Shown in pieces: positions 19,978 through 39,601 of a DNA stretch of 57,018 bases. The stretch is from a virus: positions 1 to 57,018 of the IMG/VR virus record IMGVR_UViG_3300033996_001518; one strand, written 5' to 3'. Within the stretch, counting starts at the first letter, position 1. Every line of letters begins with the position of its first letter. A program made the translations under genes and the position numbers. The notes beneath the pieces were generated by a model, which did not search any database, was not told where the DNA came from, and saw only the letters and a list, made by a program, of their open reading frames with translations.

Positions 19978-20433
19978 TTATTTGTTATGTGTTAAGACAT
20001 TATTCGCAAAATACAAGTTACTATTATTAACGTCAACATCATAAACCGTTGTTGGTTCTGTAATTACCACTAATGAAGTAATTTCAAATTCAGTATTATC
20101 AATATCCAATAATACATCACCAACGTTTAATTCTGATGTTGTTCTGATATACCAAACACCATTTTGTTTAACAACGTGGTTATGAGAATCGGTTGCAATT
20201 AATCTACCATTATTAATGTTAACAACTGAATCAAATTCGTATGTTGTAAAATTAATAACCGTTGATGTTGAACTAACATAATTCAATGTATCACTACTCC
20301 AAGAGTACCACTCATTCGCAGGTTGAGGCATTCCTGATACATCAATAGATTTAAGTACATCATTCACTTGAATATCTTGTATTAATTTGGTTGACCCATC
20401 CGATAATGTTATTAAGGTATCGGAAACTAAACA
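19978..20433 (-). other. Hint (intein/hedgehog-type) autoprocessing domain at the fibre C-terminus
   Basis: The 151 codons from Cys1292 to the stop encode a Hint fold. Block A is [20 protein letters not shown]. Block B is ATDSHNHVV with the Thr-x-x-His signature. The last block, [15 protein letters not shown], is followed by VLTHN. The usual nucleophile after HN is replaced by Lys and then the stop codon. Confidence 0.75.
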
Positions 20434-23400
20434 TCCAGTACACAAAGAACAAACTCCAAAAGATGTACCGTCCCAATATCTTCGATTTGTTCCATCACTA
20501 TACCACCCCGCCGTTGCAGGAGATAAATAACAATTACCCTCTCCGTCACCCGAATTTAAAATTGTTGCTGAACACAAATCACAACTATCGGCACAATTAA
20601 AATCAAGCAATGGGTTATTACAAGCATTAGAAGCGCTTAAACCATATTGAAAGTCTGTTAAACATAAAGATGGTGGTGTTGTTGGTGTTGGGGTTGGTGT
20701 TGGTGGAGGTAAACAACAATCATTTACCGCTATTTCCCAATAACCATCACCATCACCACCGGTTTTTACAACACTATCTTGTTGAGCACAAACATCTAAT
20801 GGCGAGTCAAATTCACCTACACCTACATTTGTTACGGTTCCATTACAAGCAGTATATTGATAATTTGTATACCCAATGTAAGGGGTAAATGGTGGACTAC
20901 TAGTATAAAATAATGTATAACATACACAAACTATTGGTAGTGTTTCGGTTGGTGTTGGTGTTAAGGTTGGAGTTACTGTTGGAGTTTGAGTTCTTGTTGG
21001 TGTATTAGTAGGTGTTTTTGTTAGTGTATTAGTTGGTGTATTTGTTGGTGTTTTAGTTTGAGTTGGCGTTTGAGTTGGAGCTAAATAAAATAAAACGTTA
21101 GAAAATGAACTTGTAGTCGGTGAAGTATTACATCCTTGATAAACTTTATAATAAGTAGCAACTAAAGGTTTTGAGAAAGTATAAGAACTTCCACAAGCAC
21201 ATGCCGTACAAATTATTGTATAATTTATTCCATCAGTTGATGAATACCAAAATAAAGCTCCACAAGAACCTCCACCAGCAGGTAATGAATAGTTAATTGT
21301 TAAAGTTGAACCATTATCAACGATATTATTTAAAACAGGTGCCAAACATTCAGGTGTTGTTGTTGGAGTTATTGTGTTTGTAGGGGTATTTGTTGGGGTT
21401 TTAGTTATAGTATTTGTTGGTGTTATTGTGTTTGTAGGGGTATTTGTTGGGGTTTTAGTTATAGTATTTGTTGGCGTTTGAGTCATTGTTTTTGTAGGTG
21501 TTGGAGTAGGGGTTTGTGTAAATTCACTTGTAATACAACTTGGTGATTGTGCCGCTCCTGAAATACCTGGAACACCAGCAACTGTTTGTACGAATGTTGC
21601 TGCTAAGGTTGTAGGGTTAATTGACCATACTTGACGGGTACCCTGTACAACATATAATGTGGTACCAACAATGTACATACCCCAAGCATTAGTAAACGGT
21701 AATTGGGTGGAGTTCCAAACTGTACCATCACTTAAGAATTCACCAATAAAACTATTAGACCCATTCGAATATGTTACAAAATAGTGTGTTGTTGTTGGAT
21801 TATAAACTATGTCTCCATCAACAAATGTACCGGATGGTAAATTAAATAATAAAGTACTTGTTGCAGTTGTTGTTGTAATATTTAACGAATATATTGAAGA
21901 ACCACCCATTAATAATGTAGTATTATTAATTGCCCCTAATCCTGCCCCATACGCTCCTGCCGGATAAGATATTATTCTATTAGGCGTTTGAGATACACTA
22001 AACGGACTCAATGTTAAATCATATTCATAAATATCAGTAGTATTGTATAACCATAATTTATTACTTGTCATAGCAATATCAGGGGAACCAATCCCAGTTG
22101 ATAATACTAACTCTGAAGTATTAAGAGTTGGATTATAATGATATACATTTCCTGAATTATTAAATGCAACATCACAACTGTTAAAAATTATCGGAGTTGC
22201 AGTTGGTGTTGGAGTTTGAGTTGATGTTCTTGTAGGTGTTTGAGTTTGAGTTGCGGTGTTAGTAGGAGTTTGAGTTATTGTGTTAGTTGGTGTTATTGTA
22301 TTGGTAGGGGTATTTGTTGGAGTTTGAGTTATTGTGTTAGTTGGTGTTATTGTATTGGTAGGGGTATTTGTTGGAGTTTGAGTTATTGTGTTAGTTGGCG
22401 TTTGAGTTTGACTTGCAGTGTTAGTAGGTGTTTGAGTTATTGTGTTCGTTGGCGTTTGAGTTTGACTTGCAGTGTTAGTAGGTGTTTGAGTTATTGTGTT
22501 AGTTGGCGTGTTTGTTGGCGTTTGAGTTTGAGTAGCAGTGTTAGTCGGAGTACTAGTCTCTGTGTTAGTTGGCGTGTTTGTTGGCGTTTGAGTTTGAGTA
22601 GCAGTGTTAGTCGGAGTACTAGTCTCTGTGTTTGTTGGCGTGTTTGTTGGCGTTTGAGTTTGAGTAGCAGTGTTAGTCGGAGTACTAGTCTCTGTGTTTG
22701 TTGGCGTGTTTGTTGGTGTCTCAGTATTTGTCGGAGTCGGAGTATTAGTCGGAGTTTCTGTATTTGCAGGTGTTGGTGTTTGAGTCGGAGTTTCTGTATT
22801 AGTTGGCGTATTAGTCGGAGTACTAGTCTCTGTGTTTGTTGGAGTGTTAGTTGGAGTTTCTGTATTAGTTGGCGTTATAGTTTGTGTTGGTGTTTCAGTA
22901 TTAGTCGGAGTTGGAGTCTGAGTAGCAGTATTAGTCGGAGTACTAGTCTCTGTGTTTGTCGGAGTTGGAGTCTGAGTAGCAGTATTAGTCGGAGTACTAG
23001 TCTCTGTGTTTGTTGGCGTGTTTGTAGGTGTTATAGTTTGTGTTGGTGTTTCAGTATTAGTCGGAGTCGGAGTATTAGTCGGAGTTTCTGTATTTGTTGG
23101 CGTGTTTGTTGGCGTCTCAGTATTAGTTTGAGTTGGAGTATTAGTCGGAGTTTCTGTATTTGTAGGTGTTGGAGTGTTAGTTGAAGTTTGGGTTGGAGTT
23201 TGAGTTGGTTGGGCATCTGTTGGTGTTACAGTGTTAGTTGGTGTTGGTGTTTGAGTTAACACAGGACAATAAGTTGGCGTTACACAAATATTTGTATCTG
23301 ACCCGTTATATCTTGTTACTAACGCATTATAGTTATTTACAATCTCATTCGACGTTAATCCTCTATTAAAAATTTGAACTTCTCCGATATTACCATCAAA

Positions 23401-24306
23401 ATATTCAGTTATATTTGTTAATCCTATTGTAAGGTTATTAGCATTAGGAACATTATGCCCGGTAGGAGTGTCAGAACCAATTAAAACACCATTAACCCAA
23501 ATACTTCTTGTAGTACCATCAAAAGTAGCAACCGCATTATACCAAAGTCCCGGTGTTATTGTTGTTGTAACACTTAAATCGTTTGCCCACCAATAATTTA
23601 CCAATCCTGAAGAAGTAAGTCGGAAAGCATTTACTTGATTTGTTGCACCATAATTACCCCACCCAACAAGACCTTTTTCCCCAAGAGTATCAGTATTAAA
23701 CCAAACACTTATAGTGTAATTTGAATTACCGATTGGTATATTTGTTGGTGTTGTAAAAGAAACATATTGATTGGCACCATTAAAACCCAAATAACCCTTT
23801 AAACCTGAGTTATAAGTAACACCATTAACCAATGTTCCGTTATTGTTGGGATTATTAGTTAAGTCATACCATACAGTACCTGTTTTTGGGTATGAAGATG
23901 GTAATCCTGCGTCAAGATTTAAGGTATTACCACTTGTAACAATTGGTGGGTAATTTTGATTGGTTACAAATATTCCATTTGTAATCGCCCAATCCATCGC
24001 GGTTAATAAAGTTAGAAATGGACCTTCGGATTTTGCTATCGCAATTCTATTAATAAGATTAATTAAACTCTCATCCGTTAAATCATTAGTACAATAACAT
24101 AACATAAATGCAGACTCTTCATCTGTCTTATTCATAAAATAAGAATCAATTAGAAGATTATAATTATCACATACCCCACAAGTCGAGCACCAATCCAAAT
24201 TAGTTAAATTAACAGAACTATTTACAGCAACTGAAACCCTACTGGTATTTAACGCCCAATCTTGATTACTACCTGCGTTATACGCCATCAAACTAACATT
24301 TGCCAT
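19978..24306 (-). CDS. Giant fibre with LamG-like domain, long Thr/Pro stalk, propeller and C-terminal Hint domain (1442 aa)
   Basis: Residues 1-120 are a Cys-containing head domain. Residues about 122-335 resemble LamG/concanavalin-like lectin domains ([32 protein letters not shown]). A roughly 355-residue Thr/Pro/Glu stalk follows at 348-704. Residues 705-930 form a propeller-like domain homologous to one in the 1510-residue fibre. Short stalks then separate an Fn3-like and two Cys-rich domains. Residues 1292-1442 are a Hint domain: Cys1292 in [14 protein letters not shown], a TDSH block B motif, [15 protein letters not shown], and a terminal His1440-Asn1441 followed by Lys1442. Hint domains cleave their own backbone. 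With Lys instead of Cys/Ser/Thr after Asn, protein splicing is unlikely, but N-terminal cleavage remains possible. Confidence 0.8.
22274..22435 (-). repeat. 54-bp tandem repeat within the stalk
   Basis: GTTATTGTGTTAGTTGG on the plus strand recurs at 22274 and 22328, with a diverging third copy from 22382. The period is 54 bp (18 codons), encoding [18 protein letters not shown]-like units. Confidence 0.65.
22534..22731 (-). repeat. 66-bp tandem repeat (3 copies) within the stalk
   Basis: The segment beginning AGCAGTGTTAGTCGG on the plus strand recurs at 22534, 22600 and 22666, a period of 66 bp or 22 codons, with near-identical DNA. It encodes [20 protein letters not shown]-type units. High identity suggests recent expansion. 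Confidence 0.75.
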
Positions 24307-24426: not shown

Positions 24427-24612
24427 ATGAAACTTCTTTCAACCATAGAAAAAATTATCCAAGAAGCCGAAGATAATTACAATAACGCCTGTGAAGGTGC
24501 AACATCCATTGATGAATTAGATAGACTTGAAAAACAATATAACGATTCATTAAAATTATTAACATTTTATAAGTTTAATGAACACAAAAACCCTCCAAGT
24601 GAGGACATTTAG
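24427..24612 (+). CDS. Small acidic helical protein (61 aa)
   Basis: A 61-residue protein, MKLLSTIEKIIQEAEDNYNN at the start, predicted to form two charged helices (about 3-22 and 27-45) that could pair as a coiled coil. It is acidic and has no membrane segment. It is the first gene of the plus-strand island, followed by a strong hairpin terminator, so it may be transcribed separately from the glycosyltransferase genes. The TATTTATA box just upstream supports its being a real gene. Function unknown. Confidence 0.55.
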   Translation: MKLLSTIEKIIQEAEDNYNNACEGATSIDELDRLEKQYNDSLKLLTFYKFNEHKNPPSEDI

Positions 24613-24711: not shown

Positions 24712-26274
24712 ATGAAACATAAAGAAATATCTCGTATTGATTTAATAAACGAAATTGGGAAAGAGTTTCCAAAAGGAAAAGGTGTAGAAGTAGGAACATT
24801 TAAAGGTGAGTTCTCAAAAGAAATTATGGAAAATTGGGAAGGTTCATTGTATATGGTTGATGTTTGGAGACCTCTATCAAATGAAGAATACTTAGATGCA
24901 AGTAACCACGGTAATCATGAAACTCAAATTTATGGTGAAGCGATGAATAACATTAAAGGATTTGAAGATAGAGCAGTAATGGTTAGAGCAACCTCAGAAA
25001 TCGCCTCTAATATGTTTGAAGACAATTCTTTAGATTTTGTCTACATTGATGCAAATCACGCTTACGATTATGTTGTTCAAGATATTGAATTATGGTATCC
25101 TAAAGTAAAAGAAGGCGGTTATTTATGTGGTCACGATTATATCAACATGGATTGGAATAAAGACCCTAATTTTACCCAAAATGGAAAAGATAAACACATT
25201 TATAGTAATAATTTCTATCACGGAGTATTTGGAGTTAATCCGGCTGTTGATGAATTTTGTGAGAAAAATGGGTATGATTCTCAAGTAACTAAAGAATGGT
25301 TTGGAACTTGGTGGTTAAAAAAAAAAGTAGATACTAAAAAAATTGCGGTCTTAGTTGTTTATGACGACAACTACGAAGAAATGAAAAAAATAACCGTTGA
25401 TGATAACATTCAACAATATTGTGAATTACACAATTACACATTAATAAAACATAAAGTTGAAGAGACTGATAGACACGCGTCGTGGTACAAAATATCAAAA
25501 TCAATTGAACTATTAAAATCAAATGAATTTGATTGGGTGTTTTTTATTGATTTGGATTGTTTAATAATGAATCCAACTATCAAATTGGAAACCATTATTG
25601 ACGAAAAATATTCATTTATCGTCCCCTCACATAATATACCCGCAATTGACACTCCAACCATCACCCCATTCAATACTGATAATACAATAACAAGTCAATT
25701 TTTAGTTAAAAATGACGAAATGGGTATTAAAATATTAGAAGACATATGGGAGGCCAATGGATGGCCGGAAAATATGGATATTAATACTTTTGACTACGAG
25801 GGTAGACAGGCAAGAATAACCATTATAAAACCGGAATTTTCAAATCACATTAAAATTATTGATGAAAAAATACTGAATCGATTTTGGTATATGAATTCAC
25901 CATTTATGGTTTTCCATAATTTTGATGTGAATAATTTGGTATGGAATCCGGGAGACTTCATTGTACACGTAACCGGTTATAAAAAAGAGGACCGAATTAA
26001 ATTACTAAGTGATTTAAATTATTTCTCAGGTGGTAAGGTAGTTAATGTTAAATTAAAAAACGGTACCCTATCATTTAAACCACTACTTGATTTACCTTAT
26101 CTAAAACTACAAATTTTAGATGACCAAAATAATATAATTTTAGAACAAGAATACATGGACATGAGTTCAAAACAACCGTATTCACTAAACTTATCAAACT
26201 TCAAAAATACCAATAATTTTATAATTAAAGGTTATAATAAAATCAACAATTTAATATCATTACATAAAGTTTAA
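24712..26274 (+). CDS. Methyltransferase-glycosyltransferase fusion (520 aa)
   Basis: Residues 1-205 are a class I SAM-dependent methyltransferase of the Methyltransf_24 kind: motif I VEVGTFKG (25-32), then DFVYIDANHAYDYVVQDIEL (108-127), EGGYLCGHDY and a Trp-rich end. Residues about 207-420 are a GT-A glycosyltransferase resembling GT34 (galactosyl/mannosyltransferases): IAVLVVYDDNYEE, a DWVFFIDLDCLIMN segment with the DxD metal motif at Asp280-Asp282, and SQFLVKND. The last 100 residues are beta-rich and may bind the acceptor. Together they could transfer a sugar and methylate it. The gene is followed 2 bases later by the multi-glycosyltransferase gene, so the two are probably co-translated. 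The sugar and acceptor cannot be read from sequence. Confidence 0.8.
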   Translation: MKHKEISRIDLINEIGKEFPKGKGVEVGTFKGEFSKEIMENWEGSLYMVDVWRPLSNEEYLDASNHGNHETQIYGEAMNNIKGFEDRAVMVRATSEIASNMFEDNSLDFVYIDANHAYDYVVQDIELWYPKVKEGGYLCGHDYINMDWNKDPNFTQNGKDKHIYSNNFYHGVFGVNPAVDEFCEKNGYDSQVTKEWFGTWWLKKKVDTKKIAVLVVYDDNYEEMKKITVDDNIQQYCELHNYTLIKHKVEETDRHASWYKISKSIELLKSNEFDWVFFIDLDCLIMNPTIKLETIIDEKYSFIVPSHNIPAIDTPTITPFNTDNTITSQFLVKNDEMGIKILEDIWEANGWPENMDINTFDYEGRQARITIIKPEFSNHIKIIDEKILNRFWYMNSPFMVFHNFDVNNLVWNPGDFIVHVTGYKKEDRIKLLSDLNYFSGGKVVNVKLKNGTLSFKPLLDLPYLKLQILDDQNNIILEQEYMDMSSKQPYSLNLSNFKNTNNFIIKGYNKINNLISLHKV

Positions 26275-26276
26275 AT

Positions 26277-29200
26277 ATGAGAGCATTTATAACTCACACA
26301 ACTGAAAATTATGAACACATTACACTAAATTTAGTTAAAAGTATTCAAAAATATTCTAAATATAAAATTTTTGTTTATACCATAGATTATGATGGTTCAA
26401 GTGATTTACAAAAAGAAACAACTTGTATTAGATTAAACCTAAATCTACCTGAGATTGATGAATCAAGTTTTATTTCAAACGTTAATGGTAATTCATATGT
26501 TAACAGACAACAAATTAGAACATACCTAACATTAGGAGCTAAAGTTGATGTGATGTTAGACGCATCCTCAATTATAGATGAATGGGTTTATCTTGATTCA
26601 GATAGTATTGCAAATAAAAATATTGACGAACTATTTGATTATTGCGAAAAAGTAAAAGATTTTCCATTAGCGACTTTAGGTCCTTACGAATATGTTTTAT
26701 TAGTTAACCCTGACGGTTCTTTAGTTGGGAATCCATTTTGGAAAGAAAACAACACAATTGATTATGAAAACACTTTAGAGTGGCCATTAATGAAATTCAT
26801 GGGATTACAACCAAATCAAAGAAGTTATTATAAGACCACAAATCTTTTGGTCGGTAATTCTAACACAAAAGATTTCTTAAGAACATGGAAAGATACTAAA
26901 GATATTTTACCAAAATTAGTTTCATTAAAAGAGATTGCTCCATATCATGAAGAAACAATTTACAATGTACTAACATGGAAAATAAATCCAAATCATGAAG
27001 GATTACCAATTTCATACATTAATGTTACAGGAGCTGACACACTAAAACACTTCTTCAAATTTAACGGAAACAAACGTACAACAGTTAGAGAATTTTACAC
27101 AATACCTGAAGACAAAAATAACATAAAAGTTTTCCACGGAGAAAAACGTCAATCAGAAATTGATAAAATGTTTGAAATAATTGATGGTAATGACAAAATG
27201 AAAGTATTGTTTTTAGCTCCTCATTTATCAACCGGAGGTATGCCATCATTCCTATTAAAACGAATTGAATCGTTATTGAAATATTATCAAGATAAGATGG
27301 AGTTATTTGTTGTGGAGTATTCAAACCATAGTGACCATTATGTTGTTCAAAAAAACAGAATTAAAGAGTTAATACCATCAACCCATTTTTGGACATTAGG
27401 TGAAGATAAAAACGAATTAAAGAAAATTATTGAGGAAAATTATTTTGATGTAATCCATTTGGATGAAATGATTGAATCGTTTGATTATTATAATAAATTG
27501 TCAAATGAATTAATGAACTTCATTTACAAAAATGACCGAACTTGGAGAGTTGTTGAAACTTGTCATAATGTTGTATTCCAACCGGATAATGAAAAAATAT
27601 TCCACCCTGACTCGTATTCATTTTGTTCACCATTCCATAAGGAAGTAACCTTTACGAATATGCCATCACATGGTGAAGTAATTGAATTCCCTTATAACCC
27701 AACAATTGTATTATCAAAAGAAAGTGCAAAAAATAAATTAGGTTTAGACCCAAACAAAACACATATAATAAATGTTGGATTATGGACATCAGGTAAAAAT
27801 CAAGAAGAGGGTGTTGAAATTGCACGATTAGTTGAAAATTTTTACCCTGAGTTAGAATTTCATTTCATCGGAAACCAAGCCCCAAACTTCCAAAATTATT
27901 GGGAACCAATAATGAAAAATTTACCATCTAACGTTAGAGTGTGGGGTGAGAAAGACAATGTTAGTGATTTTATGGCCGCTGCTGATGTGTTAATGTTTAA
28001 TTCAACTTGGGAATGTAATCCATTAGTATTACGAGAAGGTATTTCTTACGGATTAAAAATATTAGCAAGAAACCTACCACAATATATGGATATGTTTACG
28101 CCTTACATTAAACAAATGTCAGGTGATATTTTTGATATGAAAAATCAACTTTTAGATTTAATCAAAGATGAAAAAGTTTACGAGTTTCCTTTATACACCG
28201 CAAAAGAATTTGCTGAAAAAAATTATGAATTATATCAACGAATATTAAATCAACCAATAAAGAAACAAATTATTATTGATGAAGAAGTTCAAATATTTCA
28301 ACATTTTGTTAAAGAACCATTTTTAGAAATAAAAGGAACAGGTGATAAAGACTATAATATTAAATTCTTTGACGAAGAAGGTGTTTGTCATTATGAAAAC
28401 ACAATAAAACCAAATCATTGGATTAAACTAAGTAGAAATTATTACACCAAATGGAGAACGACTGTAACTCGTGATAATGTTATTATCTATGATAATACCT
28501 TAGACTTTACAAACAAGAGAGTTTATATCGCATTTGATAGTAAATCATTAGGTGATTCAATTGCATGGATTCCTTATGTTATGGAGTTCAAAAAGAAACA
28601 CAATTGTAAAGTTATTGTGTCAACGTTTTGGAATCATTTATTTGAAAGTGAGTATCCGGAAATCGAATTTGTAACACCAGGCATACCTGTACCCAATTTA
28701 ATTGCAATGTATTCTATTGGATGGTTCTACGATAAAAATAAAGAACCAATTCAACCTAATTTAATACCATTACAACAAACAATAACTAACATATTAGGTT
28801 TAGATTATGTTGAAATACAACCAAAAATACATAACCCTACTAATCCAAGACCTTATCAGAAGAAATATGTCACCATTGCAACTAATTCAACGGCAGGATG
28901 TAAATTTTGGACAAGAGAAGCGTGGCAAACATTAATTAATCATCTTCATAGTTTAGGTTATAAAATAATAAATGTTTCAAAAGAGGATAACCCATTTGAG
29001 AACGTAAATAAAATTAAAAACACATCTATGTCTCACACCATAAGTGTTATTAATCACAGTGAGTTCTTTATAGGTTTATCAAGTGGTTTATCTTGGTTAG
29101 CTTGGGGATTAGGTAAAGAAGTTGTTATGATTAGTAATTTTACCCAACATGACCACGAATTTACAATAAATTGTACTCGAATTACAAATAAAAAAGTATG

Positions 29201-29351
29201 TAATGGATGTTGGAATAATCCTGAATTTACCTTCGATAAAGGAGATTGGAATTGGTGCCCCGTACATAAAGGAACTGAAAGACAATTCGAATGTCATACC
29301 TCAATCACACCAAAAATGGTTATAGACCAAATACAACATTTAATTAAATAA
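26277..29351 (+). CDS. Three-module glycosyltransferase with C-terminal BAHT-type heptosyltransferase (1024 aa)
   Basis: Residues 1-300 are a GT-A-like domain with a DSDS metal motif (107-110). Residues about 305-660 are a GT-B, GT4-type domain (LFLAPHLSTGGMPSFLLKR, NVGLWTSGKNQEEGVEIARL, ADVLMFNSTWECNPLVLREG). Residues about 670-1024 match the bacterial autotransporter heptosyltransferase family (TibC/AAH): SLGDSIAWIPYV, VSTFWNHLFESEYPEIEFV, then a four-cysteine finger at Cys975, Cys978, Cys994 and Cys1006 (CNGCW, WCPVH, FECHTSI). BAHT enzymes add heptose from ADP-heptose to Ser residues of repetitive adhesins. Here the likely acceptors are the Ser/Thr-rich fibres encoded on both sides, which is an inference. 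Modification of host surface sugars is the alternative. Confidence 0.85.
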   Translation: MRAFITHTTENYEHITLNLVKSIQKYSKYKIFVYTIDYDGSSDLQKETTCIRLNLNLPEIDESSFISNVNGNSYVNRQQIRTYLTLGAKVDVMLDASSIIDEWVYLDSDSIANKNIDELFDYCEKVKDFPLATLGPYEYVLLVNPDGSLVGNPFWKENNTIDYENTLEWPLMKFMGLQPNQRSYYKTTNLLVGNSNTKDFLRTWKDTKDILPKLVSLKEIAPYHEETIYNVLTWKINPNHEGLPISYINVTGADTLKHFFKFNGNKRTTVREFYTIPEDKNNIKVFHGEKRQSEIDKMFEIIDGNDKMKVLFLAPHLSTGGMPSFLLKRIESLLKYYQDKMELFVVEYSNHSDHYVVQKNRIKELIPSTHFWTLGEDKNELKKIIEENYFDVIHLDEMIESFDYYNKLSNELMNFIYKNDRTWRVVETCHNVVFQPDNEKIFHPDSYSFCSPFHKEVTFTNMPSHGEVIEFPYNPTIVLSKESAKNKLGLDPNKTHIINVGLWTSGKNQEEGVEIARLVENFYPELEFHFIGNQAPNFQNYWEPIMKNLPSNVRVWGEKDNVSDFMAAADVLMFNSTWECNPLVLREGISYGLKILARNLPQYMDMFTPYIKQMSGDIFDMKNQLLDLIKDEKVYEFPLYTAKEFAEKNYELYQRILNQPIKKQIIIDEEVQIFQHFVKEPFLEIKGTGDKDYNIKFFDEEGVCHYENTIKPNHWIKLSRNYYTKWRTTVTRDNVIIYDNTLDFTNKRVYIAFDSKSLGDSIAWIPYVMEFKKKHNCKVIVSTFWNHLFESEYPEIEFVTPGIPVPNLIAMYSIGWFYDKNKEPIQPNLIPLQQTITNILGLDYVEIQPKIHNPTNPRPYQKKYVTIATNSTAGCKFWTREAWQTLINHLHSLGYKIINVSKEDNPFENVNKIKNTSMSHTISVINHSEFFIGLSSGLSWLAWGLGKEVVMISNFTQHDHEFTINCTRITNKKVCNGCWNNPEFTFDKGDWNWCPVHKGTERQFECHTSITPKMVIDQIQHLIK

Positions 29352-29382: not shown

Positions 29383-32300
29383 TTATTTTATTGGTTTATA
29401 TTCCAATAAAACTTTCTCAACGTCTTTTCGTTCTGCGTATATTAAATAAAATACATTAATATCGTCACAACCACTATCTATAAAGACTTTGTTATCTTTA
29501 ATCTCAACAATGTAGTTTTCACAAGGTTTACCAATTGAGGTTAGATTCACTGTAAAACTATCTTCATGAACTAATCCAACCCAATAATCCGGTAATTCAA
29601 TTACTTTTTGTGTTGTACTACCTCTAAAGTAAACTCCATGTTCTGGTCCCTCTAAGACACCATATCTTAAACGATAACCTTCTTTAGTTGGATGAGGGAT
29701 ATCGAATGATTTGGATGCTGCGGTTAATGAACCTGTCATTACAGTATCACCAGTAATTCTTAATGTTGAACCATCAAATGTCGCATTTGTTTCAGCTTGT
29801 AATTCACCTGAGTTACCAGTTGCGGTGGTTAATCTATTATTAGCATTGTTCAGTATATTAGCAATACCACTAGTACCTGAAGTTCCACTAGTACCTGTTG
29901 TTCCTGATGTTCCATTAACACCTGAAGTTCCACTCGTACCTGTTGTTCCACTTGTTCCTGTCGTACCGCTAGTTCCCGAAGTACCTGTTGTTCCTGATGT
30001 TCCATTAACACCCGAAGTTCCTGATGTACCTGTTGTACCGCTAGTTCCTGTAGTTCCACTAGTTCCTGATGTACCTGTTGTTCCGCTAGTTCCTGTTGTT
30101 CCTGAAGTACCTGATGTACCATTTACACCCGAAGTACCTGATGTACCGTTAACACCTGAAGTACCACTCGTTCCTGTTGTACCACTTGTACCTGTAGTTC
30201 CTGAAGTACCTGAAGTTCCTGTTGTTCCTGATGTACCTGTTGTTCCTGATGTACCTGTTGTTCCACTAGTTCCTGATGTACCATTTACACCCGAAGTTCC
30301 ACTTGTTCCTGTAGTACCCGAAGTACCTGATGTACCTGTAGTTCCACTTGTTCCTGTAGTACCCGAAGTACCTGATGTTCCATTTACTCCCGAAGTTCCA
30401 CTTGTTCCTGTTGTTCCTGATGTACCTGAAGTTCCGTTAATACCTGAGGTTCCGCTAGTTCCTGTAGTACCTGATGTACCACTTGTACCTGTAGTTCCTG
30501 AAGTACCTGTTGTACCACTAGTCCCTGTTGTTCCTGAAGTTCCATTAACACCCGAAGTTCCACTTGTACCTGTCGTACCACTAGTCCCTGTTGTTCCTGA
30601 AGTTCCATTAACACCCGAAGTTCCACTTGTACCTGTCGTACCGCTAGTTCCACTTGTTCCTGTCGTACCGCTAGTTCCCGAAGTTCCACTAGTCCCTGTT
30701 GTTCCTGATGTACCATTAACACCCGAAGTTCCTGATGTTCCATCAATACCTGAAGTTCCACTTGTTCCTGATGTTCCATTTACTCCTGATGTCCCACTTG
30801 TGCCTGAGGTACCTGTTGTTCCTGAAGTACCACTAGTTCCTGATGTACCTGTCGTACCACTTGTTCCTGTAGTTCCTGATGTACCTGATGTACCATTAAC
30901 ACCTGAGGTTCCACTTGTACCTGATGTACCACTTGTACCTGTTGTTCCACTAGTTCCTGAAGTACCTGTAGTTCCTGATGTACCTGTTGTTCCTGAAGTT
31001 CCATTTACACCTGAAGTTCCACTAGTTCCTGTAGTTCCTGATGTACCTGAAGTTCCATTAACACCCGAAGTTCCACTTGTACCTGTTGTTCCTGATGTAC
31101 CTGTTGTTCCTGAAGTTCCATTTACACCTGAAGTTCCACTAGTTCCTGTAGTTCCTGATGTACCTGAAGTTCCATTAACACCCGAAGTTCCACTTGTACC
31201 TGTTGTTCCTGAAGTACCTGAAGTTCCATTAACACCAGAAGTTCCACTTGTACCTGTTGTACCACTAGTTCCTGATGTACCATCTATACCCGAAGTACCA
31301 CTTGTTCCTGACGTACCACTTGTACCTGTAGTACCTGAAGTACCGCTAGTTCCTGTCGTTCCTGATGTTCCACTTGTACCTGTCGTTCCTGAAGTACCTG
31401 ATGTACCATCCGTTCCCGAAGTACCGCTAGTTCCGTCAATGCCTGAGGTTCCACTAGTACCTGTTGTCCCACTTGTACCTGAAGTTCCACTAGTACCTGT
31501 TGTCCCTGATGTTCCGCTTGTACCTGTGGTTCCACTTGTACCTGTAGTTCCTGAAGTACCACTAGTTCCTGATGTACCATCTATACCCGAAGTACCACTT
31601 GTTCCTGACGTACCACTTGTACCTGTAGTACCTGAAGTACCGCTAGTTCCACTTGTTCCTGACGTACCTGTAGTTCCTGAAGTACCGCTAGTACCTGATG
31701 TTCCATCTATACCTGAAGTTCCTGAGGTACCTGTTGTACCGCTAGTCCCTGATGTACCTGTTGTACCGCTAGTTCCTGACGTACCTGTCGTACCGCTAGT
31801 TCCTGATGTTCCATCTATTCCTGAAGTACCACTTGTACCTGTTGTTCCTGACGTACCTGTCGTACCGCTAGTTCCTGATGTTCCATCTATTCCTGAAGTA
31901 CCACTTGTACCTGTTGTTCCTGACGTACCTGTCGTACCGCTAGTTCCTGAAGTTCCATCTATCCCACTTGTACCTGAAGTACCTGAGGTACCTGTTGTAC
32001 CACTTGTTCCTGAAGTTCCATCTGTTCCACTTGTACCTGAAGTTCCATCTATCCCACTTGTACCTGAAGTACCTGAAGTACCTGAGGTACCTGTTGTACC
32101 ACTTGTTCCTGAAGTTCCATCTATCCCACTTGTACCTGAAGTACCTGAAGTACCATCTGTTCCGCTAGTACCTGAAGTACCATCTGTTCCACTAGTACCT
32201 GACGTACCTGTTGTACCGCTAGTTCCTGATGTACCTGTTGTACCGCTAGTTCCTGACGTACCTGTCGTACCGCTAGTTCCTGAAGTTCCATCTGTTCCAC

Positions 32301-35300
32301 TTGTACCTGATGTACCATCTGTTCCACTAGTACCTGACGTTCCGTCAACACCACTTGTTCCTGAAGTTCCATCTGTTCCACTTGTACCTGAAGTACCTGA
32401 AGTACCATCTGTTCCACTAGTACCTGACGTTCCGTCAACACCACTTGTTCCTGATGTACCTGTTGTACCGCTAGTTCCTGAAGTTCCGTCTATTCCCGAA
32501 GTTCCACTTGTTCCTGAGGTTCCATCAATACCCGAAGTACCACTAGTTCCTGTTGTTCCACTTGTACCCGAAGTACCATCAATACCTGAAGTACCACTTG
32601 TTCCTGATGTTCCATCTATCCCAGATGTACCACTAGTACCTGATGTACCACTTGTTCCTGATGTGCCCGAAGTACCATCAATTCCCGATGTTCCGCTTGT
32701 ACCTGAAGTACCATCTGTACCACTAGTTCCTGAAGTTCCATCAATACCGCTAGTTCCTGAAGTTCCATCTGTACCGCTTGTACCTGAAGTACCATCTGTA
32801 CCGCTCGTTCCTGAAGTACCATCAATACCCGAAGTACCGCTAGTTCCGTTAATACCTGATGTCCCTGATGTCCCTGATGTTCCAGCAATTGCCCCAACTG
32901 ATGTTAATACAAATGAATAATATGAATTACCTTCAGTATAATATACCACTGACCTCGAACTTGAATCATTATTACTCAAATATAACCTAACAATCATTCT
33001 ATTTGTTGGGTCAATTGTTGTTGTCGGTAAAACAATATCGACATTAACCTCAACAGGTACCACAGAACTAACCCACCCAATTAAGGCAACGTTAGACGTT
33101 ATTGTTGGACCTATTGGTGTTCCCGACGAAGTTGCTAATTGAATTTCAACATAAGCATCGATATCATCATTTGATGCCGGTTTTAGATAATGTAAATGAA
33201 ATCTTTGTACACCACCAGGAATTACTGCAAAACCTAATTGTGGCGTTATGTAATCGGAAACCAAAACATTTTGTTGACTTCCTGTTAAATTTGTTGTTAA
33301 AGTTTGTGTTGTAGCCGTTGATGGGTCTGTTGATAATACTTTATAACCCGAAACATCACTATTCTGACTTTCATTGAAGTAAAATACCTGACCTGCGGAA
33401 ATACCATTTTCTCCACTTGTCCCTGAAGTACCTGTCGTTCCTGAAGTTCCACTTGTTCCTGTTGTACCACTAGTACCGGTTGTTCCTGAAGTACCACTTG
33501 TTCCTGTTGTTCCGCTAGTACCTGAAGTACCGTCAGTTCCACTAGTACCTGTAGTTCCACTAGTACCTGATGTACCATCTATTCCACTTGTACCCGATGT
33601 TCCACTTGTACCACTAGTTCCTGATGTACCATCTGTTCCGCTAGTCCCTGATGTACCATCTGTTCCGCTAGTCCCTGAAGTTCCATCGGTTCCGCTAGTC
33701 CCTGATGTTCCATCAATTCCTGAAGTACCACTAGTTCCCGTTGTACCACTTGTTCCTGATGTACCATCCGTTCCTGAAGTACCTGTAGTACCACTAGTTC
33801 CTGAAGTACCCGTAGTTCCACTAGTTCCTGATGTACCTGATGTACCTGTCGTACCACTAGTCCCTGAAGTTCCCGAAGTTCCGTCCGTTCCACTTGTTCC
33901 TGAAGTCCCGGTTGTTCCCGAAGTACCACTTGTACCTGATGTTCCGTCAATTCCTGAAGTACCACTAGTTCCCGTTGTACCTGAAGTACCTGAAGTGCCA
34001 TCTGTTCCGCTAGTTCCTGATGTACCATCAATACCTGAAGTACCTGAAGTACCATCAATACCTGATGTTCCACTTGTTCCCGAAGTACCTGAAGTACCAT
34101 CAATACCACTAGTTCCTGACGTACCTGAAGTTCCATCTATTCCTGAAGTACCTGATGTTCCGTCAACACCACTTGTTCCTGATGTACCATCAATTCCTGA
34201 AGTCCCTGAAGTTCCATCAATACCTGATGTACCTGAGGTCCCTGAAGTTCCACTTGTTCCTGATGTCCCATCAATTCCTGAAGTTCCACTAGTCCCTGAT
34301 GTACCATCTATTCCACTTGTACCTGAAGTTCCACTTGTACCGGTTGTTCCTGAAGTACCGCTAGTACCTGAAGTACCGTCAATACCTGAAGTTCCACTTG
34401 TTCCTGTTGTTCCTGAAGTTCCACTTGTACCTGAAGTCCCATCAATACCTGAAGTTCCACTAGTACCTGAAGTACCATCAATTCCTGAAGTACCTGACGT
34501 TCCGTCAATACCACTTGTTCCTGAAGTACCGTCAATACCTGATGTTCCTGAGGTACCTGATGTTCCATCAATTCCTGAAGTACCTGAAGTACCATCAATT
34601 CCTGAAGTTCCACTTGTTCCTGAAGTACCGTCAATACCTGAAGTTCCACTTGTACCTGATGTTCCATCTATTCCGCTAGTACCTGAAGTACCATCTGTAC
34701 CTGAGGTTCCACTAGTCCCTGATGTACCTGACGTTCCGTCAATACCGCTAGTTCCACTTGTTCCCGAAGTTCCATCTATTCCTGAAGTCCCACTTGTTCC
34801 CGAAGTTCCATCTATTCCTGAAGTACCACTTGTACCTGATGTTCCATCAATTCCTGAAGTACCTGATGTACCATCTATTCCTGAAGTACCACTTGTACCT
34901 GATGTACCATCTATTCCTGAAGTACCACTTGTACCTGATGTACCATCTATTCCTGAAGTTCCACTAGTTCCTGATGTACCATCAATTCCTGAAGTTCCTG
35001 AAGTTCCGTCAATACCACTTGTTCCTGATGTACCATCAATTCCTGAAGTACCTGACGTTCCGTCAATACCACTAGTTCCTGAAGTTCCGTCAATACCACT
35101 AGTTCCTGAAGTTCCGTCAATACCACTAGTTCCTGAGGTACCTGATGTACCGTCTGTCCCACTTGTTCCTGATGTTCCTGATGTACCATCTATCCCTGAA
35201 GTTCCACTTGTACCTGAAGTACCTGACGTTCCATCTATTCCTGAAGTACCACTTGTTCCTGAAGTTCCTGATGTACCTGAAGTTCCGTCTATTCCTGATG

Positions 35301-37584
35301 TACCGCTAGTCCCTGATGTTCCATCAATACCACTAGTCCCTGATGTTCCATCAATACCACTAGTCCCTGATGTACCTGAAGTACCATCTGTTCCACTAGT
35401 TCCTGAAGTTCCGCTAGTACCATCAATACCGCTAGTCCCTGAAGTTCCATCAATTCCCGAAGTTCCTGAAGTTCCATCAATTCCTGAAGTACCTGAAGTT
35501 CCATCTGTACCGTTAATACCTGAAGTACCTGATGTACCATCTGTACCGTCAATACCCGAACAACCTGTCACACCTGATGTACCTGAAGTACCATCTATTC
35601 CACTTGTACCTGAAGTACCGTCTATTCCACTTGTACCTGAAGTACCGTCTATTCCACTTGTACCTGAAGTACCGTCTGTACCACTAGTACCTGATGTACC
35701 ATCAATTCCCGAAGTTCCTGATGTACCGTCTACTCCACTAGTTCCTGAAGTACCTGACGTTCCGTCAATACCACTAGTTCCTGAAGTTCCATCTGTTCCC
35801 GAAGTTCCTGATGTTCCATCAATACCACTAGTACCTGAAGTTCCGTCTATTCCACTTGTACCTGATGTCCCGTCTGTACCACTAGTACCCGATGTTCCGT
35901 CTATTCCTGAAGTTCCACTTGTTCCTGAAGTTCCATCTGTTCCCGAAGTTCCTGATGTTCCATCAATACCACTAGTACCTGAAGTTCCGTCTATTCCACT
36001 TGTACCTGATGTCCCGTCTGTACCACTAGTACCCGATGTTCCGTCTATTCCTGAAGTTCCACTTGTTCCTGAAGTTCCATCAATACCACTAGTTCCTGAA
36101 GTTCCATCTGTTCCCGAAGTTCCTGATGTTCCATCAATACCGCTTGTACCTGATGTACCATCTGTCCCACTAGTACCTGAAGTTCCGTCAATGCCACTAG
36201 TTCCTGAAGTACCTGACGTTCCGTCAATACCACTAGTTCCTGAAGTACCGTCTGTTCCCGAAGTACCTGACGTTCCGTCAATACCACTTGTTCCTGAAGT
36301 TCCATCTGTTCCCGAAGTTCCTGATGTTCCATCAATACCACTAGTACCTGATGTACCGTCTATTCCACTTGTACCTGATGTACCTGATGTACCTGATGTA
36401 CCATCTATACCGCTTGTACCTGATGTACCATCTATACCGCTTGTACCTGATGTCCCGTCTATCCCTGAAGTTCCACTTGTTCCTGAAGTTCCATCAATAC
36501 CACTAGTCCCTGATGTTCCATCTGTACCACTTGTACCTGATGTACCATCTATACCGCTTGTACCTGATGTACCATCTGTCCCACTAGTACCTGAAGTTCC
36601 GTCAATACCACTAGTACCTGAAGTTCCATCTGTACCACTAGTACCTGATGTCCCATCAATTCCTGAAGTCCCTGATGTTCCATCAATACCGCTAGTACCT
36701 GAAGTTCCACTAGTTCCTCCTGTAAAATTAATTGTTACATTACCTCCGCCATCATTAATAACTGAAGCCCCTGAAAATGTCATACCTGTAACATTAGTTA
36801 CTGTTACACCTGACGTGGCATCATAAACTGTAAGAGGACTACCTCCACCTGATGTGAATCCTGAAACATTTACTAAAGAACCATCACTATTATTAAGGGT
36901 TAACGTTTCAGTACCACTGTTATATGTTCCACCTGTTATAGCCCCATTAAAACCTGATATTGATATTGTACCTCCGGTACTATTGAATAAGTCTAAAGTT
37001 GTTGTCGCAGAATAATATGTACCTCCTGTTATTTGAATATCAGTAGCACTTACAATTCTCCATCTGGCATTATCTCTTGTAACTCCATTAACCCCTTCAA
37101 TTGTTGAACCTGTCCAAGCACTAATAAAATTTTTACCCGCTTGTGAACGGTTATTAACTACCGTTGTATAATCTGTTTGGGTAATTGCAGAATTACCAGT
37201 TAAACCCGATAAATTATTCCAAAGAGTTTCATAATTAGGAATAACATATTGGTAGGAAGTATTTGTTTCTTGAACCCACACTTCCATACCCAATCTTCTT
37301 CTACCTGATGATATATTATCCGAATTTAAACTAATACTGTCCGGTGAAAATGCACTTCCCGTTCCTTTAGTAAAATTAATCGGTATCGTATTTGCAGATA
37401 ACTGAATCTGCGCAGGATAAGTAGAAGCTGTTAAAATTAACTCTAAATCGTTTAATTCCCAAACCTCCATATACCCCCCAATATTCAAAACCGAGAATGT
37501 ATTACCAAACGTAACCGTCCTACCTACAGTATCGGTCCCTGAACTTTGAGTTAATGAAATCGGATTCTTATATTGAAATGCCAT
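29383..37584 (-). CDS. Collagen-like giant fibre (2733 aa)
   Basis: Residues 1-288 are a beta-rich N-terminal domain (MAFQYKNPISLTQSSGTDTV). Residues about 288-1391 and 1565-2573 are unbroken Gly-X-Y collagen-like repeats built from GTSGTSG plus spacers GID, GTD, GTT or GVN. A folded beta domain interrupts at about 1390-1562 (FYFNESQNSDVSGYKVLSTD). Residues 2574-2733 are a tip domain with FDIPHPTKEGYRLRYGVLEG and VIELPDYWVGLVHEDSFTVN, a module I recall from tail-fibre-like proteins of marine T4-like phages. It probably forms a very long trimeric fibre; Thr and Ser at X and Y offer thousands of hydroxyl sites per trimer. It converges on the glycosyltransferase gene across a shared terminator. 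Assembly around the copy-number-variable repeats should be checked. Confidence 0.85.
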   Translation of the reverse strand: MAFQYKNPISLTQSSGTDTVGRTVTFGNTFSVLNIGGYMEVWELNDLELILTASTYPAQIQLSANTIPINFTKGTGSAFSPDSISLNSDNISSGRRRLGMEVWVQETNTSYQYVIPNYETLWNNLSGLTGNSAITQTDYTTVVNNRSQAGKNFISAWTGSTIEGVNGVTRDNARWRIVSATDIQITGGTYYSATTTLDLFNSTGGTISISGFNGAITGGTYNSGTETLTLNNSDGSLVNVSGFTSGGGSPLTVYDATSGVTVTNVTGMTFSGASVINDGGGNVTINFTGGTSGTSGTSGIDGTSGTSGIDGTSGTSGTDGTSGTSGIDGTSGTSGTDGTSGTSGIDGTSGTSGTDGTSGTSGIDGTSGTSGTSGIDGTSGTSGIDGTSGTSGIDGTSGTSGTSGTSGIDGTSGTSGIDGTSGTSGTDGTSGTSGIDGTSGTSGTDGTSGTSGIDGTSGTSGTSGIDGTSGTSGTDGTSGTSGIDGTSGTSGTDGTSGTSGIDGTSGTSGTSGIDGTSGTSGTDGTSGTSGIDGTSGTSGIDGTSGTSGTDGTSGTSGTSGIDGTSGTSGTDGTSGTSGIDGTSGTSGIDGTSGTSGTDGTSGTSGIDGTSGTSGTSGVDGTSGTSGIDGTSGTSGTDGTSGTSGIDGTSGTSGIDGTSGTSGIDGTSGTSGVTGCSGIDGTDGTSGTSGINGTDGTSGTSGIDGTSGTSGIDGTSGTSGIDGTSGTSGTSGTDGTSGTSGTSGIDGTSGTSGIDGTSGTSGTSGIDGTSGTSGTSGTSGTSGIDGTSGTSGTSGTSGIDGTSGTSGTSGTDGTSGTSGTSGIDGTSGTSGIDGTSGTSGIDGTSGTSGIDGTSGTSGIDGTSGTSGIDGTSGTSGTSGIDGTSGTSGTSGIDGTSGTSGTSGIDGTSGTSGIDGTSGTSGTSGIDGTSGTSGTSGIDGTSGTSGTSGIDGTSGTSGTSGTSGTDGTSGTSGIDGTSGTSGTSGIDGTSGTSGTSGIDGTSGTSGIDGTSGTSGTSGIDGTSGTSGIDGTSGTSGIDGTSGTSGTSGIDGTSGTSGTSGTTGTSGTSGIDGTSGTSGTSGTTGTSGTSGTSGIDGTSGTSGTSGIDGTSGTSGTSGTSGTSGIDGTSGTSGIDGTSGTSGVDGTSGTSGIDGTSGTSGTSGIDGTSGTSGTSGTSGIDGTSGTSGIDGTSGTSGTDGTSGTSGTTGTSGTSGIDGTSGTSGTSGTTGTSGTSGTDGTSGTSGTSGTTGTSGTSGTSGTTGTSGTSGTTGTSGTDGTSGTSGTTGTSGTSGIDGTSGTSGTDGTSGTSGTDGTSGTSGTDGTSGTSGTSGTSGTSGIDGTSGTSGTTGTSGTDGTSGTSGTTGTSGTSGTTGTSGTTGTSGTSGTTGTSGTSGENGISAGQVFYFNESQNSDVSGYKVLSTDPSTATTQTLTTNLTGSQQNVLVSDYITPQLGFAVIPGGVQRFHLHYLKPASNDDIDAYVEIQLATSSGTPIGPTITSNVALIGWVSSVVPVEVNVDIVLPTTTIDPTNRMIVRLYLSNNDSSSRSVVYYTEGNSYYSFVLTSVGAIAGTSGTSGTSGINGTSGTSGIDGTSGTSGTDGTSGTSGTDGTSGTSGIDGTSGTSGTDGTSGTSGTSGIDGTSGTSGTSGTSGTSGTSGIDGTSGTSGTSGIDGTSGTSGTTGTSGTSGIDGTSGTSGTSGIDGTSGTSGTTGTSGTSGVDGTSGTSGTDGTSGTSGTSGTDGTSGTSGVDGTSGTSGTDGTSGTSGTDGTSGTSGTTGTSGTSGTTGTSGTSGTTGTSGTSGTDGTSGTSGTDGTSGTSGTSGIDGTSGTSGTTGTSGTSGTSGTSGIDGTSGTSGTDGTSGTSGTTGTSGTSGTSGIDGTSGTSGTTGTSGTTGTSGTSGIDGTSGTSGTTGTSGTTGTSGTSGIDGTSGTSGTTGTSGTSGTTGTSGTSGTTGTSGTSGIDGTSGTSGTSGTTGTSGTSGTSGTSGTTGTSGTSGTSGTSGIDGTSGTSGTSGTTGTSGTTGTSGTSGTTGTSGTSGTSGTTGTSGTSGIDGTSGTSGTDGTSGTSGTTGTSGTSGTTGTSGTSGTTGTSGTSGTSGTSGIDGTSGTSGTTGTSGTSGVNGTSGTSGTTGTSGTSGVNGTSGTSGTTGTSGTSGVNGTSGTTGTSGTTGTSGTSGVNGTSGTSGTTGTSGTSGVNGTSGTTGTSGTTGTSGTSGTTGTSGTSGTSGTSGVNGTSGTSGTTGTSGTTGTSGTSGTSGTTGTSGTSGTSGVNGTSGTSGTSGIDGTSGTSGVNGTSGTTGTSGTSGTSGTTGTSGTSGTTGTSGTSGVNGTSGTTGTSGTTGTSGTSGVNGTSGTTGTSGTTGTSGTTGTSGTSGTTGTSGTSGINGTSGTSGTTGTSGTSGVNGTSGTSGTTGTSGTTGTSGTSGTTGTSGTSGVNGTSGTSGTTGTSGTTGTSGTTGTSGTSGTTGTSGTTGTSGTSGVNGTSGTSGVNGTSGTSGTTGTSGTTGTSGTSGTTGTSGTTGTSGTSGVNGTSGTTGTSGTSGTTGTSGTTGTSGTSGVNGTSGTTGTSGTSGTSGIANILNNANNRLTTATGNSGELQAETNATFDGSTLRITGDTVMTGSLTAASKSFDIPHPTKEGYRLRYGVLEGPEHGVYFRGSTTQKVIELPDYWVGLVHEDSFTVNLTSIGKPCENYIVEIKDNKVFIDSGCDDINVFYLIYAERKDVEKVLLEYKPIK
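29866..32890 (-). repeat. Collagen-like repeat array 2 (C-terminal part of the fibre)
   Basis: About 1000 codons of Gly-X-Y triplets. The right part, up to about 31250, is rich in GID, GTD and GTT spacers. The left part, about 29866-31250, is rich in GTT and GVN and nearly lacks Asp. Confidence 0.85.
33410..36720 (-). repeat. Collagen-like repeat array 1 (N-terminal part of the fibre)
   Basis: About 1100 codons of Gly-X-Y triplets, mostly GTSGTSGID and GTSGTSGTD nonapeptides (27-bp DNA units). The only Cys is in a GVTGCSG variant near 35560, at about residue 675. Confidence 0.85.
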
Positions 37585-39295: not shown

Positions 39296-39601
39296 TTATT
39301 GCTCTGTAATGGTAATATTAACAATACATGACACCAAGTTAATAGTGATTTCAAACGCACAACCAAAAGTACAATCAAGTATTTTAAAAATCTCACAATC
39401 GTTATCATCCACTAACAATAACATAATTTCAGGAGCGGTATTAAATATTGTTGGTATTACAGTATTATAGTTAACTGTTGGAGGTACAGGACCTGTTCCA
39501 ATAACTCCTAATAAACTACGATTATTACCATATACATCAGCTATGTATACACTAATTGGGTAAGTCCCCCCCGATATTTCATCAATTCTAATTTGTGTCA
39601 T
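39296..39601 (-). CDS. Small fibre-cap-like protein (101 aa)
   Basis: I place the start at ATG 39601 (MTQIRIDEISGGTYPISVYI) because the longer reading uses a TTG at 39613, and the ATG overlaps the upstream stop as TAATG. The protein shows the same pattern as the 72-residue protein and the N-terminus of the 624-residue fibre: I-I-S-G-TYPISVYI, a central turn, then LLLVDDNDCEIF. It ends in a beta-rich Cys-containing segment without a stalk. It is likely another stand-alone member of the fibre-cap family. An 88-bp non-coding gap follows. Confidence 0.6.
   Translation of the reverse strand: MTQIRIDEISGGTYPISVYIADVYGNNRSLLGVIGTGPVPPTVNYNTVIPTIFNTAPEIMLLLVDDNDCEIFKILDCTFGCAFEITINLVSCIVNITITEQ

What the first reader, a model, noticed from the sequence alone, without database searches (positions are those of the whole stretch)
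24712..29351. Candidate phage-encoded glycosylation system for the phage's own Ser/Thr-rich fibres
Two adjacent plus-strand genes encode a methyltransferase-GT34 fusion and a three-module glycosyltransferase. They lie inside a minus-strand cluster encoding Thr/Pro stalks and a GTSGTSG collagen-like fibre, which together offer an exceptional density of hydroxyl sites. The last module belongs to a family that O-glycosylates repetitive surface adhesins. An analogy from known biology is the O-glycosylated collagen-like GPT repeat of Bacillus BclA. The acceptor assignment is inference; host glycan modification is the main alternative.
Basis: partly seen in the sequence, partly recalled or inferred. 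Interest (0 to 1): 0.92.

Follow-up and report, generated by a model that had tools for sequence, protein, structure and literature searches.

The report
Phage sugar-coating cassette for collagen-like fibre
Two genes in a freshwater phage, probably of Bacteroidota, encode a set of sugar-attaching enzymes whose key part resembles a bacterial enzyme that coats surface adhesins with sugar; across many phages they go together with a giant Gly-Thr-Ser repeat fibre, so the phage probably sugar-coats its own tail fibre.

Summary
Both genes are real and at the stated coordinates: 24712-26274(+) is a methyltransferase-GT34 fusion, 26277-29351(+) a GT-A / GT4 / TibC-like three-module enzyme. The last module matches the protein O-heptosyltransferase TibC (E 1e-50; predicted fold TM 0.82-0.84). 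Phage modules form a separate clade from bacterial ones: they keep the catalytic Asp and four metal-binding Cys (47/47) but lost the adenine-contact Arg (34/35) and shortened the ring-forming thumb (34/35), so neither heptose nor the TibC ring can be assumed.

Contigs found only by GTSG-repeat DNA carry the module in 22/40 cases, against 3/41 for Thr-Pro stalks and 0/24 for GPX collagen repeats. In 12 long contigs the module lies 0.4-4.2 kb from a GTS/GSS repeat gene (combined p about 1.6e-7). A colinear relative lacks both the enzyme pair and the GTS stalk but keeps its Thr-Pro stalks; a 309-kb relative lacks both module and repeat.

Best reading: a cytosolic, modular O-glycosylation cassette for Ser in the phage's own Gly-Thr-Ser fibre. 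The Thr/Pro-stalk and heptose parts of the claim are not supported. True exceptions exist; no chemistry is shown.

The parts
24712..26274 (+). Gene 1, 520 aa: Methyltransf_24 (about 24784-25140) fused to GT34 with DLD motif (about 25357-25989)
   Evidence: Pfam 2.5e-15 and 1.7e-11; the two halves are separate genes near the module gene in other phages
26277..29351 (+). Gene 2, 1024 aa: three glycosyltransferase modules in one chain
26277..27176 (+). GT-A-like module with DSD motif (residues 1-300), swapped between phages
   Evidence: Motif and predicted fold; 26-33% or 75-79% identity, or absent, in relatives
27177..28256 (+). GT4 module (residues 301-660) with EX7E motif
   Evidence: PF00534; GT4 in 46 of 47 relatives
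28257..29348 (+). TibC-like module (residues 661-1024): D760 = TibC Asp110, K876, W940, Cys975/978/994/1006; T921 in place of Arg286
   Evidence: phmmer 1.4e-50; fold TM 0.82-0.84; residues
29383..37584 (-). Proposed acceptor: 2733-aa fibre
   Evidence: 705 Gly-X-Y triplets, 483 GTS, 497 Ser-Gly dipeptides
29866..36717 (-). Gly-Thr-Ser repeat stalk of the fibre, with one non-repetitive interruption
   Evidence: only 9 Pro in 2284 residues
36946..37584 (-). N-terminal fibre domain, also carried by fibres without Gly-X-Y stalks
   Evidence: Alignment A3 and scans
24427..24612 (+). Conserved 61-aa ORF of unknown function just ahead of the pair
   Evidence: 93% identical in L009, 68% over 38 aa in L016

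Best explanation
The pair is a phage-encoded, cytosolic O-glycosylation cassette for the phage's own fibre. The TibC-like module of gene 2 puts the first sugar on hydroxyls of the Gly-Thr-Ser repeat, most likely on Ser before Gly, before or during virion assembly. The fused GT4 and GT-A modules extend the glycan; GT34 and the methyltransferase of gene 1 add and methylate an outer sugar. The TibC-like and GT4 modules form the conserved core, and the outer enzymes (methyl-, pyruvyl-, other glycosyltransferases) are swapped between phages. Shown here: gene content, homology and fold, catalytic residues, module swapping, co-occurrence and joint absence with the GTS fibre. Inferred: the acceptor, the order of addition, the identity of the sugars, and the purpose (stiffening or protecting a proline-poor repeat fibre, or masking and varying its surface).
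For: TibC homology and fold with catalytic Asp, Lys, Trp and four Cys invariant in 47 phage modules. TibC modifies Ser, not Thr, at sites within NSGG and NTSA (PMC4358343), and the fibre has 497 Ser-Gly dipeptides. GTSG-found contigs carry the module in 22/40 cases, TP-found in 3/41, GPX-found in 0/24 (Fisher p 2.8e-6 and 1.6e-6). In 12 long contigs the module lies 0.4-4.2 kb from a GTS/GSS repeat gene (combined p 1.6e-7). The colinear relative G036 lacks both the pair and the GTS stalk and keeps TP stalks; a 309-kb relative lacks both module and GTSG repeat. The pairing recurs in Microcystis phage Mel-JY01 at 37% identity and in the huge phage LR756501 at 46%. Bacterial relatives often lie beside very large ORFs, as expected for enzymes paired with adhesins. 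No strongly hydrophobic membrane-like segment in either protein. Module swapping and separate MT and GT34 genes.
Against: No biochemistry. The huge phage LR756504 has the module without any GTSG repeat. G114 has a complete GTS fibre and no module in 63 kb. In G005 module and fibre are tens of kb apart, and four module-bearing fragments gave no match to a stricter GTSG pattern. The p-values treat related records as independent. Most records are fragments, many broken inside the repeat.
Confidence: 0.7

Rival explanations
1. Host surface modification: the cassette decorates host LPS, capsule or host surface glycoproteins during infection, for example to block superinfection, and lies in the host-recognition region because such genes gather there.
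For: This is the usual reading of glycosyltransferases in phage host-recognition clusters (PMC7029224). Pyruvyl- and FkbM-type methyltransferase modules also occur in polysaccharide pathways (established knowledge of these families; modules found).
Against: The conserved module is of a protein-glycosylating type. Linkage is to one fibre chemistry and not to TP or GPX fibres. Pair and GTS stalk are jointly absent in a colinear relative. No membrane-like segment in either protein.
Confidence: 0.15
2. The cassette glycosylates other virion proteins, such as Thr/Pro stalks or the SprB-repeat protein, and the link with the GTS fibre reflects joint exchange of a tail-fibre island.
For: Five Thr/Pro-rich proteins lie in the same cluster. 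Fibre stalks behind one N-terminal domain are clearly exchanged.
Against: TP stalks occur without the module in 38 of 41 contigs and stay behind in G036. TibC acts on Ser, not Thr (PMC4358343). The pairing with GTS/GSS repeats recurs in distant phages.
Confidence: 0.1
3. DNA modification: the enzymes glycosylate or methylate hypermodified phage DNA.
For: Protection of phage DNA is a proposed role of phage glycosyltransferases (PMC10202952, PMC12619734), and PHROGs labels the methyltransferase family 'DNA methyltransferase'.
Against: Pfam places the methyltransferase in Methyltransf_24, fused to GT34. The conserved module is TibC-like, and the cassette tracks a fibre type.
Confidence: 0.02

Closest known systems
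TibC / AAH, bacterial autotransporter heptosyltransferase (BAHT) family
   Same: Fold, catalytic Asp110, Lys230, Trp305 and four-Cys iron finger; a Ser-rich repetitive partner protein
   Different: Phage modules have lost Arg286 and shortened the thumb, are fused to GT4 and other modules, form a separate clade, and pair with a fibre instead of an autotransporter
Virion glycosylation in mycobacteriophages (Freeman et al. 2023, known here only as cited in PMC12619734)
   Same: Phage glycosyltransferases that modify the phage's own virion proteins
   Different: There glycans sit at C-termini of capsid and tail tube subunits; here the proposed acceptor is a long GTS repeat fibre and the enzyme is TibC-like
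BclA of Bacillus spores (from own knowledge, not tested)
   Same: O-glycosylated collagen-like repeat on a particle surface
   Different: BclA repeats are proline-rich GPT; this repeat has almost no proline, and no relation of the enzymes was tested
Moraphages (PMC12619734)
   Same: Comparable genome size (309-326 kb records among the relatives here), freshwater habitat and probable host phylum; four glycosyltransferase families in their core genome
   Different: That paper assigns no acceptor and mentions no collagen-like fibre; identity of the two groups was not tested here

Membership tests
BAHT (TibC/AAH) family | Overall TibC fold (beta-barrel plus GT-B catalytic domain) | tested here: met
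   Predicted model aligns with the TibC chain over 350-382 columns, TMt 0.81-0.84
BAHT (TibC/AAH) family | Catalytic Asp110 with Lys230 and Trp305 | tested here: met
   Invariant in 35/35 phage and 78/78 bacterial modules; D760, K876, W940 in the window
BAHT (TibC/AAH) family | Four-Cys iron finger | tested here: met
   47/47 phage modules keep all four Cys; bound metal not testable
BAHT (TibC/AAH) family | Arg286, the adenine contact for ADP-heptose, essential in TibC | tested here: not met
   Kept in 77/78 bacterial modules, replaced in 34/35 phage modules; Thr921 in the window
BAHT (TibC/AAH) family | Beta-hairpin thumb needed for the dodecamer | tested here: not met
   33 residues in 76/78 bacterial modules, 22-29 in 34/35 phage modules; oligomeric state itself not testable
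BAHT (TibC/AAH) family | Heptosyltransferase activity with an ADP-heptose donor | not testable with these tools
   Needs an enzyme assay
BAHT (TibC/AAH) family | Partner is an autotransporter adhesin | tested here: not met
   The neighbouring partner is a phage Gly-X-Y fibre beside baseplate genes
Phage virion self-glycosylation systems | Phage-encoded glycosyltransferases | tested here: met
Phage virion self-glycosylation systems | Glycan shown on virion proteins | not testable with these tools
   Needs glycoproteomics; only genomic linkage is available
Collagen-like proteins | Long run of Gly-X-Y triplets | tested here: met
   705 triplets
Collagen-like proteins | Proline in the triplets, which usually stabilises the triple helix | tested here: not met
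   9 Pro in the 2284-residue repeat region; whether a triple helix forms is not testable here

The most novel reading that the evidence does not exclude
A phage-specific sister family of the BAHT adhesin glycosyltransferases, fused to GT4 and to interchangeable capping enzymes, works as a single-chain assembly line that builds methyl- or pyruvyl-capped O-glycans on Ser of proline-poor Gly-Thr-Ser fibres, with a donor other than ADP-heptose. It has travelled with that fibre type through phages of different host phyla, and the glycan is what makes the proline-poor repeat usable as a fibre.
Probability: 0.4. Interest if true: 0.85.

Novelty: new variant of a known kind. Interest (0 to 1): 0.72.

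Why it matters
Sugar on phage virions is known from few systems. Here one enzyme family is tied to one fibre chemistry in abundant freshwater large phages, a Microcystis phage and a 735-kb huge phage. If true, it explains what a group of orphan phage glycosyltransferases does, offers a new class of Ser O-glycosyltransferases, and adds glycan variation to the factors behind phage adsorption. It is directly testable, because an isolated phage (Microcystis phage Mel-JY01) carries both parts.

Tried and rejected
Thr/Pro stalks as the main partner: rejected (3/41; G036). GPX collagen fibres: no association (0/24). Splitting the TP-chosen set by GTSG presence was uninformative (7 GTSG-positive records, one with the module). 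Several module-negative GTSG contigs end inside the repeat, where the cassette would lie, which is an assembly break and not evidence of absence; G114 and G122 are not explained that way. In G055 GT4 and GT2 genes flank a GTS gene instead. The structure model of the N-terminal fibre domain was poor (pLDDT 56) and was not searched. The PHROG label 'DNA methyltransferase' for gene 1 was not followed, since Pfam gives Methyltransf_24. Literature searches found no earlier report that links TibC-like enzymes with phage fibres (open-licence papers only). Searches failed on input limits or frames and were rerun in changed form; one paper was not held; one search was a rejected report format.

Full report
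WHAT IS THERE. The window is an IMG/VR virus record of 57,018 bases. It encodes part of a contractile-tailed phage: baseplate J-like protein and gp25-like wedge, RuvC-like resolvase, primase, SbcD-like nuclease. Four SprB repeats in 39601-41733 point to a Bacteroidota host, by inference. Almost all genes are on the minus strand. The pair 24712-26274 and 26277-29351 is on the plus strand, two bases apart, convergent with the giant fibre gene 29383-37584. Gene 1 is a Methyltransf_24-GT34 fusion; gene 2 is GT-A-like, GT4 and TibC-like.

THE KEY MODULE. Residues 714-1016 of gene 2 match TibC (4rap, 4rb4) at 1.4e-50, and the full-length model (pLDDT 87) aligns to TibC with TMt 0.82-0.84. TibC glycosylates serines, not threonines, of adhesin passenger domains (sites within NSGG and NTSA), depends on Asp110, Arg286, Trp305 and Lys230, and forms a ring through a hairpin thumb (PMC4358343). 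In 47 phage modules below 90% identity the Asp, Lys, Trp and four Cys are invariant. Across 78 bacterial and 35 phage modules the bacterial ones keep Arg286 (77/78) and a 33-residue thumb region (76/78); 34 of 35 phage modules have lost Arg286 and 34 of 35 have a thumb region of 22-29 residues. On the tree the phage modules lie on one side of a branch with support 99/95. The phage enzymes are therefore a sister subfamily: the chemistry is kept, while donor recognition and ring assembly have probably changed. The heptose prediction should be set aside until tested.

A MODULAR CASSETTE. Among 47 non-redundant relatives the GT9/TibC part is found in 47 and GT4 in 46; methyltransferases of several Pfam families, Gly_transf_sug, pyruvyltransferase and GT2 occur in some. 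Compared with the window, L022 has GT4 86% and TibC 83% but GT-A 29%, whereas L018 has GT-A 79% but GT4 55% and TibC 66%, which is the mark of recombination between modules. Gene 1 is a fusion of two genes that stand separately near the module gene in other phages (MT 59-85%, GT34 52-55%), so gene 1 and gene 2 belong to one system. A conserved inner pair with variable outer enzymes fits a glycan whose root on the protein is fixed and whose tip varies; the order of addition is inferred.

THE PARTNER TEST. Relatives were first found by the module (181 encoding stretches in IMG/VR, 80 kept). Of 38 non-redundant loci with at least 5 kb of 3' flank, 28 show a Gly-X-Y repeat gene within the fetched flanks, always on the opposite strand. 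In 12 long contigs fetched whole, Mel-JY01 included, the nearest such gene lies 0.4-4.2 kb from the module gene. A rank test against all other genes gives a combined p of 1.6e-7, and the triplets are mostly GTS, GSS and GTT. The test was then turned round. Contigs of at least 40 kb found only by GTSG-repeat DNA carry the module in 22/40 cases, those found by a TPTNTPT stalk in 3/41, those found by GPX repeats in 0/24; Fisher p 2.8e-6 and 1.6e-6. These p-values treat related records as independent and are therefore too small. The 22 do include distant modules, and the pairing extends to Microcystis phage Mel-JY01 (37% identity) and the huge phage LR756501 (46%; 965 GTSG matches).

A NATURAL EXPERIMENT. 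Contig G036 is colinear with the window from the baseplate through RuvC, primase and exonuclease, with most proteins 55-97% identical. At the place of the fibre and the pair it has a 556-aa protein with the same N-terminal domain (62%) but no Gly-X-Y repeat, and both enzyme genes are missing; Thr/Pro stalks remain. Five further records carry this 556-aa protein, among them a 309-kb one without module or GTSG repeat; these six are one lineage. When fibres are sought by the N-terminal domain alone, most contigs break inside the repeat. Among the few separate lineages with a complete fibre and enough flank or record, the module accompanies 5 of 7 GTS-stalked and 0 of 7 other fibres (p about 0.02; lineages counted by hand). 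This separates the GTS fibre from the Thr/Pro stalks as the partner.

EXCEPTIONS. LR756504 carries a stand-alone module and no GTSG repeat. G114 has a complete GTS fibre and no module in 63 kb. In G005 the two co-occur tens of kb apart, and four module-bearing fragments (G006, G007, G008, G019) gave no match to a stricter GTSG pattern. G055 has GT4 and GT2 genes around a GTS gene without a TibC-like module, possibly an independent solution.

RIVALS. Host-surface modification is the usual reading of such genes (PMC7029224) and cannot be excluded. It does not explain the tie to one fibre chemistry, the joint absence in G036, or the protein-glycosylating type of the conserved module. Other virion proteins remain possible as additional acceptors. 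DNA modification is unlikely.

NOVELTY. Phage self-glycosylation is known (mycobacteriophages, as cited in PMC12619734) and BAHTs are known. No paper found here links the two or describes the phage subfamily, within an open-licence library only. It is rated a new variant of a known kind.

Noticed in passing
window 19978-24306 (-), C-terminal 130 residues: A Hint/intein-like end ([13 protein letters not shown] ... VLTHNK; PT-HINT only at E 0.042) on a Thr/Pro-stalk fibre that also has a LamG-type domain (2.8e-18): possible self-cleaving fibre tip.
   Followed up: no
window 39601-41733 (-): Four SprB repeats (9.7e-21), a repeat known from Bacteroidota gliding adhesins, in a phage fibre cluster.
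   Followed up: no
window 36946-37584 (-); loci L775-L854: The same N-terminal fibre domain carries Gly-Thr-Ser, Thr/Pro or other stalks in different phages, which suggests exchange of whole stalks.
   Followed up: partly
L240 1-3049 (Microcystis phage Mel-JY01, PP395634.1): The GTS/GSS repeat ORF on the plus strand overlaps two CDS annotated on the minus strand (1-651, 739-2298), so the deposited annotation probably misses a fibre gene at the end of the record.
   Followed up: no
LR756501.1 (735 kb; L241): 965 matches to the GTSGTSGTSG DNA pattern: an extreme load of Gly-Thr-Ser repeats in one huge phage.
   Followed up: no
L748 7545-14341 (contig G055, 67.5-74.3 kb): A GTS repeat gene flanked by GT4 and two GT2 genes without a TibC-like module: possibly a second kind of fibre glycosylation cassette.
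   Followed up: partly
L148 (uncultured bacterium contig CAJQGZ010000080.1): A 4.4-kb contig filed as bacterial holds a GTS/GSS repeat gene 7 bases from a TibC-like fusion that lacks Arg286: probably phage DNA binned with a bacterium.
   Followed up: partly
window 24427-24612 (+): A 61-aa ORF of unknown function ahead of the cassette, 93% identical in L009.
   Followed up: no
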